Shown piece after piece: positions 13,851-38,504 of a stretch of 64,000 nucleotides of DNA (position 1 is the stretch's first letter; every line of letters starts with the position of its first letter). Under the pieces are notes generated by a model, which made no database searches, had not been told where the DNA came from, and was given only the letters and a program-made list of their open reading frames with translations. Source of the DNA: Allodiplogaster sudhausi (taxonomy: Eukaryota > Nematoda > Chromadorea > Rhabditida > Diplogasteridae). The position numbers were made by a program, and so were the translations under genes. The stretch covers positions 1 to 64,000 of the forward strand of contig CALZFC010000148.1 in NCBI GenBank assembly GCA_945643635.1, in the 5' to 3' direction.

Positions 13851-16829
13851 ATGGTCGCCGCAGGCAAGGAACAGAAGCACGCCAACGTCAGTTTCCCCTC
13901 CCTTTTCCCCGACTTCGAGAATACACCAAATAGGGGATGCCTTCTCGTGTCTTGGAAAACGCATATTGTATGAAGTTATTTAAATTATTAAAGTTGCTAG
14001 AGAAAAATGCTATAACCATATTTTGTGTTATTCAGAACGTGGATGTGAACTCGCCGTGCGTGGCTCGCTCGGGCGACATCCTCGACTCGGTCTACATCCA
14101 CCGCCGCAATCGACTCGAACGGAAGGCCGGCGGCACCGTGCGAGTCACGCCAACCGAACACGAGGTTGGCACTTTCAATTGTACCGACTCTCATGACAAC
14201 CCAGCAGATGAGACATTCAATATTGTCACGCGGCACTTGACAATCTCTCTTCTCCTTCAGTTCCGCTTTCGCACGAACATGAAGCCAGCACGCACCGGAG
14301 TCATGCTGGTCGGACTCGGCGGCAACAACGGATCCACCGTCCTCGGAGGCGTCATCGCCAACCGAAAGAGACTCTCCTGGCGGTGAGAGAGAGAGAGAGA
14401 AGAAAGAAAGAGACGGGGGATCAAGAATATCAAGTGGAATGAAGCAAGGACCGACTCTAAATTGACCTGTTTCCAGCACCCGCGAGGGCGTGCAGACTGC
14501 GAATTACTTTGGCTCAGTGACGCAGTCTTCGACCGTCCACCTCGGCTGGGATGGAGAGAAGCAAGTGCACGTTCCCTTCTACGGCCTCCTCCCCATGCTC
14601 AACCCCAATGACCTGATCATCGACGGCTGGGACATCAACGGCGCCAATCTCTACGAGTGCATGCTCCGCGCCAAGGTGGGCAGATCTTTGCCTTTCTCTC
14701 TCACTCTTTCATTCTCTTTCATTCTCTCCCTCTCCCAATCAGTCTCACCATTTTTCTCTCTTGTTGTCTATCCAACTCTAACACTCTTTCAGTCCTCTCT
14801 CTCCGTTTCTTCATCTCTCTCTCTCTCCCTCTCTTGTTGTCTTTCTCTCTCTCCTCATATCTCGTTGACGGTCTTTCTCTCTCTCACTCATGAGCCTGGC
14901 AACAACGAATGGATGTGAAAAGGGAATGATTGGCAGGTGTTCGAGCCGACGTTGATCGAGCAGCTGCGCAAGGACATGGAGGGCATCCGCCCCCGCCCCT
15001 CCGTCTACTACCCCGACTTCATCGCCAGCAACCAGGCAAGCACTCTTCACTTCTTCTTCTTTCTGCTCTTCCTACATCACATTTCCATAACATGTGATTG
15101 TCTTCAGTCCGGCCGCGCGAACAACGTCCTCCCGGGCAACAACAAACAGGCGCATCTCGAAAGACTCCGCGCCGACATCCGCGAGTTCCGAACCAAGAAC
15201 AAACTCGGTCAGGAGAGTTGGAGAGAGAAAGGAAGACGAAAGAAAGTGGAATCGACATTAACTATAGAAATTATCAGGACAAATAGAAAGCAGACAATGT
15301 CATTTAGACACTGTGATCGTGCTGTGGACGGCGAACACGGAGAGATTCACAGAAGTGCGGGATGGGCTGAACATGACGGCGGAGCAGCTGCTCGCTTCCA
15401 TCAAGAACAACGAGGACGAGGTCTCCCCCTCGAATCTCTTCGCCGTGGCCTCGATCCTCGAGAAAGCGCACTACATCAATGGATCTCCACAGAACACTCT
15501 CGTGCCTGGCATCGTCGAGCTTGCCAAGAAGGTTACTTTCCACTCTTCAGTTACATATTCAAGGCATACAAAATAGAAAGTACACAAATGGATGAATCAA
15601 TCATCAACGATGCAGCACGGCGTCTTCGTTGGCGGCGACGACTTCAAATCGGGGCAGACGAAGATTAAGTCGTCCCTCGTGGACTTCCTCGTGGCTTCCG
15701 GACTGAAGCCAGAGAGCATCGTCTCCTACAATCATCTCGGCAACAACGACGGCAAGAATCTCAGCGAGGCGCGCCAATTCAGATCCAAAGAGATCTCCAA
15801 GTCTTCCGTTGTCGATGACATGGTCGCTGCCAATCATCTCATTTATCCAGACGGCAAGGGACCCGACCACTGGTTCCTGTTCCTTTCACGTCTTTCTCTC
15901 TCTCTCTCTCTCTTTCTATCTCTCGCCCTCTCTTTATTTCTTTCTCTCTCATCCTCTCTATCTCTCTCGCCTCTCTCACACTCTCCCATTCCAGCATCGT
16001 CATCAAGTACGTGCCCTTCGTTGGTGATTCGAAGCGTGCGATGGATGAATACACCTGCTCCATCTTCATGGACGGCAAGCAGACCATTGTCAGTGATCTT
16101 CTCTGATTCCGTCTTCTCTGATATCTCGTCTTCTTCCTTTTCGCTGAAAAAAAACCCACAGACGACAATGTTTTAAACGGAGAACGGAACTGTGAAAATC
16201 CTCAATTTCTCTCTAGGCGATGCACAACACTTGCGAGGATTCTCTGCTCGCTTCTCCTCTCATCTTCGACTTGGTGATCCTCACTGAGCTCGCCACACGC
16301 ATCCGCTACTCCGTCGATGGCGGAAGGACGTATGAGAGCTTCAACGAGGTTGGATCTCTTTCTCTCTCTCCCTCTCTCTCTCTCACTCTATCTATCTCTT
16401 CGTCTCTCTCACCGTCTAACTCTCTCTCCTATCTTTCCACTCTCTCTCACCCTTCTGTATCTTCCAACTCTCTTCTCTCTGCAGGTGCTGTCAATGCTGG
16501 CCCTCCTCCTCAAGGCTCCGGTGGTGCCCGAGGGCACTCCGGTCTGCAACGCCTTCTCCCGCCAGATGGGCGCGCTCACTAAGCTCTTCTGTGCCGTGGC
16601 CGGTCCGCTTCTCTTTCCAGCTATTTCGCTCTGCTCTCTGCTCTCTCTCTCTCTCTCTCTCTGTTACCTTGATTTCTCATTTCTTCTTCCCTCAGGCGTG
16701 GCTGCTGACTCTGGGCTGCAGCTGGAGTTCTTCACGAAGATGGGTGAGGGCGAGAAGGTCACTCCTCCTGCGATCAAGGCCGACATTCCTGCCAAGGCTA
16801 AGAACGCCGCGAAGATCGCCGCGTGCTAA
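13851..16829 (+). CDS. INO1/ISYNA1: Inositol-3-phosphate synthase (myo-inositol-1-phosphate synthase)
   Basis: Twelve exons encode about 547 aa, the family's usual length: 13851-13886, 14036-14164, 14261-14382, 14477-14675, 14937-15035, 15108-15207, 15308-15531, 15616-15872, 15995-16088, 16217-16348, 16485-16602 and 16696-16829. The enzyme converts D-glucose 6-phosphate to 1D-myo-inositol 3-phosphate with bound NAD+, the committed step of inositol synthesis. Visible signatures are the dinucleotide loop GLGGNNGST, FDGWDI-like DGWDINGANL, LWTANTERF, NGSPQNTLVPG, GGDDFKSGQTK, SYNHLGNNDG and HNTCEDSLLA. The intron after 15035 has a GC donor (CAG|GCAAGC) yet restores the conserved NQSGRA reading. 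Several introns contain long CT tracts. MIOX, which degrades myo-inositol, follows 1.9 kb downstream on the same strand; the gene is probably transcribed from its own TATA promoter. Confidence 0.97.
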
Positions 16830-18378
16830 AGCCCTTATCCCTAAAACAATCCAAATATATCCCTCTCAACTGAAAACTTTAACAATAACCGTCCCCCTCC
16901 ATCTCCATTCATTTAATCTTGCTAGCGTTATTGCCAGCGTTAAATTGTTCTTCCTTCCTCCTTAACCTCCTTCCTTACTGAAATACCGGTCGTGGTCCCG
17001 CAGTGGCTGGCGAGTCCCCAGTCACTCGACCCGCTGACACTCAGAAATCTCTATGCAGCCTGCTCGATCTGAACGCGCTGCGACTTATTCTGTTCTTATT
17101 TCGTTTTCTTCAACACTTTTCAATCTTCAATACTATTCACTGAGGACACTCAACTTTCTGCGTTGAATGTCATATCATTACCTTAGTGGTTCATAAATAG
17201 TGACAGATTTCTCACGAATACCTCTCAACATCGCCCCGCCCACTTTGCTTCAGCCCCGCCTTTTCTTTCACTCCATGTATTTGACTTGACTCCATGTATT
17301 CAATAAAGAGAATAAAGTTAAATTGCAAAGAGAGGAGTGATATAACCACTCGCAAATGAGAAGGAAATGGACGAATGGCTGAAGAGGTGGATATTACATG
17401 TGAATTAAATATTAGAGAGATTAATAAATTCGGTATAAGATAAAAATTATTTCCTCTTTTTGTTCTTAATGTGATTGGTTGTGTTTTGCGGGCAAGATCA
17501 GTCTCTGTCTAACTCATCACAATCGGTTGATAAGAAAAGTATGCGGACCGATATTTGTCTTTAGATGGAAATGAGTGTTTGACACTGAAAAGAACGTCTG
17601 ATGGCTTTATATCAATCTCTTTATCAACGAATACCTAGTGATCGGGCAAAGTCCATTTAGTCTGCCTGCAGAAGAAGTAAGAAAAGAGTTGAGATTGTGT
17701 CAGGCCACCATCAGAATCGTCTCTCTTCATGGTATCAATGGCGGGACAAAATGTTTATTGTATTTCACTCACTTGTCTCAACTTCATATCGAATTGGATT
17801 CTTCTCCAATTTTGCTTCGTTTTTTGTCCTGGTCGTCGAGTTTGTCCGGTGAAGAAGGTTGTCCCATTTAACACAAATTAAGAAACATTTCATTTTTATT
17901 TTTATTCATGTGAAATACTAAATAGCATGGCAATTGCCATGACAATAAGAACGAAAAGAAGACATTTGTCGAGATCAATTTTGGTAGATCGAGCATCCAA
18001 GGCAGTCAAAGATAAGAGAGGAGAGAAGTAATTCACTTTCGAATGGATCGTGCAATTACTGTAGACGCAGAGAAGCTAGAGAAGTTAACCGGTTTTCAAG
18101 CAAAAGATTGCTCAAATCGGAGAGAGTGGGAGGACAGCGTGACAGTAGAGAAAGAGTGTGGCGATAGGAGAGGTTCTCAAGTGGAAAAGGGGCGGAGCCA
18201 CGGAGGGGCGGGGCTAAATCCAAGAGTGGATCAAATTAATATGGCGCTAGCTTTCAAAATTTCTTCCCTGATTAATTTCTTATTACATTGGCCTTTCTTA
18301 GAGCAGGTCATTCTTGTCGTCCTACAGTACATTAGTGAGAGAAATACAAATGGCGAGAGAGAGTTGGTGAACGAGACA

Positions 18379-18438
<60 letters not shown>

Positions 18439-38099: not shown

Positions 38100-38171
<72 letters not shown>

Positions 38172-38504
38172 TTCTAACCCGGAGACGATGCCAGTGTCGT
38201 AGCCGAAGAGAAGGCCTCCGACGCAAGAGAGGATGGTGAGTTGCCATACATAGGGAGTGGTGCGCGGAATTGCACTCGGCTTCTGCCGGCCCGGACGACT
38301 CCGGGAAGGCGAGATCTCAAATGCAAATTATTTTGAAATAATTTTCTATAAAAATTAATTGTTCTGTAAAATTAAAGAGATCTACAAGAGAAACAATCTT
38401 TGACGCCTCCTCTTGTAACTCACGAATTACATACTTCTTACAGTTCTTTTTCTTGGTTTGTCACATGAAAACGGTCAAAAACGTACAACTGCTCCGCCGG
38501 CCAT
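34340..38504 (-). CDS. SLC2A13-like: Proton/myo-inositol cotransporter-like sugar transporter (SLC2A13/HMIT type)
   Basis: About 18 exons join in phase, from the ATG at 38502-38504 (MAGGAISPSRS) to the stop at 34340-34342; approximate exons include 38179-38315, 37650-37706, 37122-37209, 36757-36876, 36049-36152, 35630-35765, 35189-35352, 34907-34996, 34681-34833 and 34340-34575. It is a 12-helix major facilitator of the GLUT family. Signatures are GGLLFGYDTGIVSG (helix 1), IFGRR, MIPVYISEASPCNLRG, QMFQQIIGINTIMYYSG, IERFGRR, PMPWVFNAEIYPLWARS and FVPETKGVEIEE. A Cys-rich extracellular loop (CSNCDSC, LCGFC) before the last helices is a hallmark of the HMIT subgroup, which imports myo-inositol with H+ at the plasma membrane. 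One intron (donor near 37514) begins GC. A Tc5 element now lies 6 nt past the stop, so the polyadenylation signal may come from it (AATAAA on the minus strand at 34119-34124). Confidence 0.92.
37818..37872 (-). other. Near-perfect intronic hairpin
   Basis: Arms 37818-37840 and 37850-37872 pair at 22 of 23 positions around a 9 nt loop. It lies in an intron of the HMIT-like gene and could form in the transcript. The stem is rather short for a typical pre-miRNA but is not excluded. Confidence 0.6.
38020..38175. repeat. (CT)n microsatellite in HMIT-like intron
   Basis: About 150 bp of CT with scattered T and G interruptions, ending at the splice donor side of the exon at 38179. Confidence 0.85.

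What the first reader, a model, noticed from the sequence alone, without database searches (positions are those of the whole stretch)
13851..38504. Myo-inositol gene cluster in an animal genome: INO1, MIOX, aldo-keto reductase and HMIT-like transporter within 25 kb
Four complete genes bear on one metabolite: synthesis (INO1), oxidative breakdown to glucuronate (MIOX), a reductase that could act on the aldehyde product, and H+-coupled import (HMIT-like). The identities of INO1, MIOX and HMIT-like rest on family motifs and ligand residues seen in the sequence. Animals do not normally group successive pathway genes, so this may be a selected metabolic cluster, perhaps for osmolyte handling or carbon use. 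Inositol monophosphatase is not in the window.
Basis: partly seen in the sequence, partly recalled or inferred. Interest (0 to 1): 0.88.

Follow-up and report, generated by a model that had tools for sequence, protein, structure and literature searches.

The report
Four-gene inositol cluster in a nematode
In a nematode genome, four intact neighbouring genes whose products are predicted to make, break down, import and possibly further process the sugar alcohol inositol sit side by side, and do so again in a second, diverged copy, although three of them mostly lie apart in the related worms checked; it is likely a rare animal metabolic gene cluster that formed in this lineage.

Summary
Four complete, intron-rich genes lie at 13851-38504: INO1 (+, 547 aa), MIOX (+, 272 aa), an aldo-keto reductase (-, 305 aa) and an HMIT-like sugar porter (-, 610 aa). 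Only transposon-like elements and repeats were recognised between them. The animal is a nematode, likely a diplogastrid.

It is not an assembly join. A second contig end (C73) repeats the locus at 99.3-99.9%. A diverged contig (C256, coding identity 96-97%) carries all four genes intact, in the same order and orientation, without the window's two transposons.

The genome holds a second locus (C45, C59) where an INO1 and a MIOX paralogue lie 46 and 81 kb apart. Trees place both duplications after the split from Pristionchus, so a linked INO1-MIOX pair was probably duplicated as a unit.

In relatives, INO1 and MIOX sit on different contigs in 7 of 7 comparable species, so the cluster looks lineage-specific. 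HMIT was not searched in relatives.

Unproven: co-expression, and any action of the reductase on glucuronate; it resembles YvgN/DkgA-type reductases. A chance gathering too young to have decayed remains a serious rival.

The parts
13851..16829 (+). INO1, inositol-3-phosphate synthase, 12 exons, 547 aa, intact
18718..23678 (+). MIOX, myo-inositol oxygenase, 7 exons, 272 aa, intact; exons 18718-18855, 19069-19161, 19275-19425, 19553-19649, 19775-19856, 19991-20139, 23570-23678
20388..23163 (.). Transposon-like element inside MIOX intron 6, long inverted ends, TTAT target duplication; absent from C256
24736..27296 (-). Aldo-keto reductase, 9 exons, 305 aa, catalytic tetrad kept, YvgN/DkgA-like
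31527..34331 (-). Tc5-like transposon with inverted ends about 130 nt, 8 bp past the HMIT stop codon; absent from C73
34340..38504 (-). HMIT-like sugar porter, 18 exons, 610 aa, cysteine-rich loop insertion

Best explanation
This is a block of four adjacent, intact genes in a nematode genome (INO1, MIOX, an aldo-keto reductase and an HMIT-like transporter) that is predicted to work as one unit for supplying and breaking down inositol and was likely gathered after this lineage split from Pristionchus. Inferred mechanism: INO1 would make inositol phosphate from glucose 6-phosphate, the HMIT-like porter would import myo-inositol, MIOX would open the ring to D-glucuronate, and the reductase would reduce a carbonyl compound, D-glucuronate being the pathway candidate but unproven. 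Shown: the block exists in two diverged copies (C148/C73 and C256), both intact; an INO1 and a MIOX paralogue also lie linked at a second locus (C45/C59). Inferred: INO1-MIOX linkage came first and was duplicated as a pair; the reductase and transporter joined at (or stayed only at) this locus; a later large-scale or whole-genome duplication doubled it; selection for co-regulation or co-inheritance keeps it.
For: Gene models and families. Real in the genome: the last 44.8 kb of contig C73 match window 1-47595 at 99.3-99.9%; no N in the window. C256 holds INO1, MIOX, AKR and HMIT in the same order and orientation; coding identity is 96.4-96.7%, and differences by codon position are 6/5/45, 6/1/23, 5/1/24 and 3/7/53 (145 of 179 at third positions), so both copies look constrained (older MIOX model; sums). 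Paralogous linked pair: MIOX2 at C45:481114-483799 and INO1b at C45:529320-531899; MIOX2 at C59:232571-235150 and INO1b at C59:149232-151634. Trees: INO1+INO1b one clade at 100/100, joined to P. fissidentatus at 100/99; MIOX1+MIOX2 one clade at 100/100, Pristionchus outside. The searches for MIOX and INO1 listed no further locus in this genome (36 of 36 and 21 of 21 candidates scored). In 7 of 7 comparable relatives INO1 and MIOX are on different contigs. Precedents for lineage-specific gathering: animal 'bundles' of primary-metabolism orthologues in sponges (PMC12833800, passages) and the eud-1/nag locus of Pristionchus, whose homologues lie on separate contigs in Allodiplogaster (PMC12325724, passages).
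Against: No expression data. The genes form two same-strand pairs on opposite strands with no upstream word of 7-9 bases in common. INO1-MIOX spacing is 1.9 kb and AKR-HMIT spacing 7.0 kb, so a classic nematode operon is unlikely. Flanking sequence is also collinear between window and C256, from about 12.5 to 60.9 kb in the 25 longest matches shown, so retention of order there needs no selection on the cluster. At the second locus the pair lies 46-81 kb apart, with no AKR listed on those contigs and no HMIT in the stretches fetched. Synthesis plus breakdown is not a simple linear pathway. Genome-wide HMIT copies could not be searched (tool busy). The same four genes are not shown to be grouped in any other species.
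Confidence: 0.48

Rival explanations
1. Chance gathering: rearrangements placed the genes side by side in this lineage, and duplication is too recent for the order to have decayed; no functional tie.
For: INO1 and MIOX unlinked in 7 of 7 comparable relatives; no shared upstream word; collinear flanks in C256 beyond the cluster; the paralogous pair is loose and lacks an AKR; the AKR has no demonstrated inositol role.
Against: INO1-MIOX linkage is also seen at the paralogous locus, so it survived at least one older duplication; a back-of-envelope figure with assumed numbers (25,000 genes, four HMIT copies; no call) gives about 1e-7 for INO1, MIOX and an HMIT within four consecutive genes, though the choice was made after seeing the window.
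Confidence: 0.4
2. Ancient linkage inherited from an early rhabditid ancestor and lost in most lineages.
For: Nippostrongylus AKR and MIOX tags Q1695_006557 and Q1695_006574 lie on one contig, 17 tags apart; one P. mayeri AKR shares a contig with its MIOX, 1677 tags apart.
Against: The Nippostrongylus AKR falls outside the window's AKR clade; INO1 and MIOX are apart in 7 of 7 comparable species, three of them with multi-megabase contigs for both genes.
Confidence: 0.1
3. Assembly artefact or contamination joining unrelated pieces.
For: The window lies at a contig start that overlaps another contig end.
Against: Two overlapping contig ends and a third, diverged contig agree on order and orientation; AKR, MIOX and INO1 have nematode best relatives.
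Confidence: 0.02

Closest known systems
Animal biosynthetic gene bundles such as sponge oro (PMC12833800, passages read)
   Same: Orthologues of ordinary animal metabolic genes collected in one chromosomal region of one lineage
   Different: Here the genes are directly adjacent, concern a primary metabolite, and co-function is not shown
Pristionchus mouth-form supergene with eud-1, nag-1 and nag-2 (PMC12325724, passages)
   Same: Lineage-specific grouping of functionally related genes in a diplogastrid nematode, unlinked in the other lineage
   Different: Developmental switch, not metabolism; supported by mutants
Bacterial inositol-utilisation gene clusters (PMC9430895, search listing only)
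   Same: Genes for use of myo-inositol grouped (cluster content recalled)
   Different: Bacteria use a different enzyme set (iol route, recalled); here the MIOX route plus de novo synthesis, in split genes related to other nematodes
C. elegans hmit-1.1 H+/myo-inositol transporter (PMC12479013, passages) and MIOX orthologue C54E4.5 (PMC9602106, passages)
   Same: Likely the same kinds of gene
   Different: Grouping of these genes is not mentioned in the passages read

Membership tests
Inositol-3-phosphate synthase (INO1) | Both Pfam domains PF07994 and PF01658 over the cut-off | tested here: met
   1vko alignment over residues 14-520
Myo-inositol oxygenase (MIOX) | Six di-iron ligands (His98, His123, Asp124, His194, His220, Asp253 of the mammalian enzyme; list recalled) | tested here: met
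   corresponding residues identical in the 2ibn/2huo alignments; the last lies in the exon beyond the intron element
Aldo-keto reductase superfamily | Asp-Tyr-Lys-His catalytic tetrad (recalled) | tested here: met
   D56, Y61, K90, H124
AKR1A-type glucuronate (aldehyde) reductase | Extended C-terminal segment carrying the carboxylate-binding Arg (residue recalled) | tested here: not met
   alignment to 2alr ends at query 295 of 305 but chain 297 of 324, so about 10 residues stand against 27; bacterial YvgN scores higher (161.1 against 121.3 bits)
DkgA 2,5-didehydrogluconate reductase | NCBIfam NF008598 score over 425 bits | tested here: not met
   160.6 bits
HMIT (SLC2A13) H+/myo-inositol symporter | Sugar-porter family plus a large Cys-rich extracellular loop between TM9 and TM10 (loop recalled) | tested here: met
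   TIGR00879 over cut-off; residues 366-461 with nine Cys stand where GlcP has nine residues (322-330)
HMIT (SLC2A13) H+/myo-inositol symporter | Closest relatives are HMITs rather than other sugar porters | not tested
HMIT (SLC2A13) H+/myo-inositol symporter | Proton-coupled myo-inositol transport | not testable with these tools
   needs an uptake assay
Selected animal metabolic gene cluster | Functionally linked, non-homologous genes adjacent | tested here: met
   AKR function unproven and some strand stretches not scanned
Selected animal metabolic gene cluster | Grouping kept across species or with reshuffled flanks | tested here: not met
   INO1-MIOX apart in 7 of 7 comparable species; kept only in duplicated copies within this genome
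Selected animal metabolic gene cluster | Co-expression | not testable with these tools
   no expression data available

The most novel reading that the evidence does not exclude
A young, selected animal metabolic gene cluster: a diplogastrid nematode gathered inositol synthesis, import and oxidative cleavage beside a reductase that takes D-glucuronate onward to L-gulonate, giving nematodes a myo-inositol route to ascorbate, a route whose enzymes are not settled in worms.
Probability: 0.1. Interest if true: 0.88.

Novelty: new variant of a known kind. Interest (0 to 1): 0.6.

Why it matters
Metabolic gene clusters are common in bacteria and fungi but thought unusual in animals. A four-gene cluster for one primary metabolite, present in two intact copies beside a looser paralogous pair in the same genome, would let one ask directly how such clusters form and whether selection holds them together. 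It also nominates a specific reductase as the step after MIOX, in a phylum where the route to ascorbate is still debated: PMC7463950 and PMC9602106 (passages) disagree on whether C. elegans has orthologues of the last two enzymes, and the latter proposes myo-inositol as a substrate worth testing.

Tried and rejected
MIOX truncated by a transposon: suspected when exon 6 ran into repeats; rejected when the last exon was found at 23570-23678 beyond the element.

Operon: INO1 and MIOX share a strand, but the stop-to-ATG gap is 1888 bp with AATAAA at 17302, 17311 and 17423, and the other two genes are on the opposite strand; thought unlikely, not excluded.

Shared promoter motif: no 7-, 8- or 9-mer passing the complexity filter is common to the four 800-bp upstream regions; 300 random sets of four windows averaged 0.91, 0.05 and 0.01, so the test had little power.

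Ancient AKR-MIOX linkage seen in Nippostrongylus: set aside because its AKR lies outside the window's AKR clade.

Horizontal transfer: nothing supports it; the best relatives of AKR, MIOX and INO1 are nematode proteins.

Literature: no listed title or abstract start in searches reports a linked INO1/MIOX/HMIT group in an animal; these cover only the open-licence library held, and most listed papers were not opened. Rfam on the window at gathering threshold: no match.

Not obtained: genome-wide copies of HMIT and of inositol monophosphatase (search tool busy).
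Full report
Check of the observation. Stop-free exon chains with GT/GC-AG introns give four complete proteins (MIOX corrected): INO1 at 13851-16829 (+, 12 exons, 547 aa), MIOX at 18718-23678 (+, 7 exons, 272 aa), an aldo-keto reductase at 27296-24736 (-, 9 exons, 305 aa) and an HMIT-like porter at 38504-34340 (-, 18 exons, 610 aa). Pfam names all four. INO1 aligns with the 1vko synthase over residues 14-520. MIOX aligns with the mammalian enzymes to the last residue, with the six iron ligands (list recalled) identical. 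The AKR keeps the catalytic tetrad D56, Y61, K90, H124. The porter passes the sugar-porter cut-off and carries a 96-residue insertion with nine cysteines where GlcP has nine residues, which is what I recall of HMIT.

What organism. Best hits are nematodes: AKR 54% to Pristionchus fissidentatus, MIOX 70% to Diploscapter pachys, INO1 74% to P. fissidentatus. INO1 groups with P. fissidentatus at 100/98 and 100/99; the place of MIOX among nematodes is unresolved. The assembly is 351.8 Mb in 382 contigs. Size and paired contigs would fit a diplogastrid with a recent whole-genome duplication such as Allodiplogaster sudhausi (duplication described in PMC12325724, passages); the species was not established.

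Is it a join? The window is the start of contig C148. The last 44.8 kb of contig C73 repeat window 1-47595 in two matches of 99.88% and 99.26% identity, with small gaps, and without the Tc5-like element at 31527-34331. At that site C73 reads target duplication, two bases, target duplication, as excision of such an element would leave. C256 carries INO1 (1,508,005-1,510,926 +), MIOX (1,514,009-1,515,875 +), AKR (1,519,423-1,516,984 -) and the porter (1,526,507-1,522,519 -) in the same order and orientation (outer limits of tblastn matches), without the element in MIOX intron 6. The four coding sequences there are intact and 96.4-96.7% identical; third positions hold 145 of 179 differences (which used the older MIOX model; sums). 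The arrangement is real, and both copies look constrained.

The second locus. The whole-genome search for MIOX found matches on five contigs: C148, C73, C256, and a different MIOX on C45 and C59. The search for INO1 found the same five contigs. On C45 the second MIOX (481,114-483,799) and second INO1 (529,320-531,899) are 46 kb apart; on C59 (232,571-235,150 and 149,232-151,634) they are 81 kb apart. The paralogues are 80.0% (MIOX) and 85.8% (INO1) identical to the window's, and each pair forms one clade at 100/100 that excludes Pristionchus. The simplest reading is that INO1 and MIOX were already linked and were duplicated together. No AKR match lies on C45 or C59 (57 matches listed, 105 of 105 candidates scored). 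No HMIT match lies in the 60-kb stretch fetched around MIOX2 on each, about 2.5 kb of which reads N. Of window open frames of 40 residues or more, only those of INO1 and MIOX match any stretch fetched from C45 and C59 at E 1e-8. C45 515-526 kb and C59 153-205 kb were not fetched, and the HMIT search of the whole genome did not complete.

Relatives. From the 120 rows listed in each, seven species show both INO1 and MIOX with contig lengths from comparable sources: P. fissidentatus, Caenorhabditis auriculariae, C. angaria, Diploscapter pachys, Auanema sp. JU1783, Steinernema carpocapsae and Mesorhabditis spiculigera. In 7 of 7 the contigs differ. This is strong for P. fissidentatus, C. angaria and S. 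carpocapsae, whose contigs exceed 10 Mb, and weaker for the other four, where one or both contigs are under 1 Mb. Nippostrongylus was dropped because its two rows appear to come from different assemblies. AKR and INO1 are on different contigs in 6 of 6 species (P. fissidentatus, C. auriculariae, Cylicocyclus, Bursaphelenchus xylophilus, Ditylenchus destructor, S. hermaphroditum), but only the first three have an AKR in the window's own subclade. AKR and MIOX are on different contigs in P. fissidentatus, C. auriculariae and Ancylostoma ceylanicum. One of two P. mayeri AKRs shares a contig with MIOX, 1677 tags apart. In Nippostrongylus the two are 17 tags apart, but that AKR belongs to another subclade. 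HMIT was not searched in relatives.

How it most likely works. From established enzymology, INO1 makes inositol 3-phosphate, MIOX cleaves myo-inositol to D-glucuronate, and HMIT imports inositol with protons. In C. elegans hmit-1.1 belongs to the hypertonic response (PMC12479013, passages). Grouping would let one chromatin neighbourhood set the inositol pool for osmotic balance or for glucuronate supply. That is inference. The AKR is the weakest member: it scores highest with YvgN-type reductases in the PDB, is below the DkgA cut-off, and has about 10 residues where human aldehyde reductase has 27 at the C terminus.

Selected or chance? For selection: INO1-MIOX linkage at the paralogous locus, all four genes intact in both copies, and the small prior odds of such a group (back-of-envelope only). 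Against: no grouping shown outside this genome, no shared upstream word (a weak test), equally collinear flanks in C256, and no expression data. I hold the two readings nearly even, slightly for a functional cluster.

Novelty. The searches made (listings only, apart from the papers cited) showed no such animal cluster. Animal gene bundles made of ordinary metabolic genes are known (PMC12833800, passages), and lineage-specific functional loci are known in diplogastrids (PMC12325724, passages). This is a new variant of that kind.

Noticed in passing
window 20388-23163: Transposon-like element in MIOX intron 6: inverted arms of 471 and 80 nt, 100% complementary, TTAT duplication, and two minus-strand open frames (21942-21610, 21489-21121) with no Pfam match; absent from C256.
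   Followed up: partly
window 31527-34331; C73 at the same site: Tc5-like transposon 8 bp past the HMIT stop codon; contig C73, otherwise 99.3-99.9% identical, shows what looks like an excision footprint, so this family seems recently mobile.
   Followed up: partly
window 29027-30516: Inverted repeat (265 nt, 99% complementary arms) whose arms hold a 15-bp minisatellite, each arm with an open frame starting MINSVVKMALTNNLIGYKDVQDG.
   Followed up: no
window 9584-9715 and nearby, minus strand: Sec1-family gene exons (PF00995, 8.4e-27), a neighbour upstream of INO1.
   Followed up: no
window 786-1235 and 4275-5300, plus strand: Zinc-finger-like exons that look like Schnurri/sma-9 (recalled resemblance; no Pfam match at 0.001).
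   Followed up: no
window 51700-51858, minus strand: Proteasome subunit exon (PF00227), the next cellular gene recognised beyond HMIT.
   Followed up: no
window 46778-49720, plus strand: 980-aa open frame that looks like a LINE endonuclease/reverse transcriptase (by eye, not scanned).
   Followed up: no
window 57659-57841, plus strand: DDE_3 transposase fragment (PF13358).
   Followed up: no
introns, e.g. 14680-14890 and 25050-25280: Many introns are filled with (CT)n/(GA)n simple repeats, giving long chance open frames of Ser-Leu or Arg-Glu.
   Followed up: no
G000 contigs C148/C73 versus C256; C45 versus C59: Paired contigs (about 85-93% DNA and 96-97% coding identity for the first pair; 98.9% protein identity of INO1b and of MIOX2 for the second) point to recent large-scale duplication or diverged haplotypes; the pairs may differ in age or nature.
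   Followed up: partly
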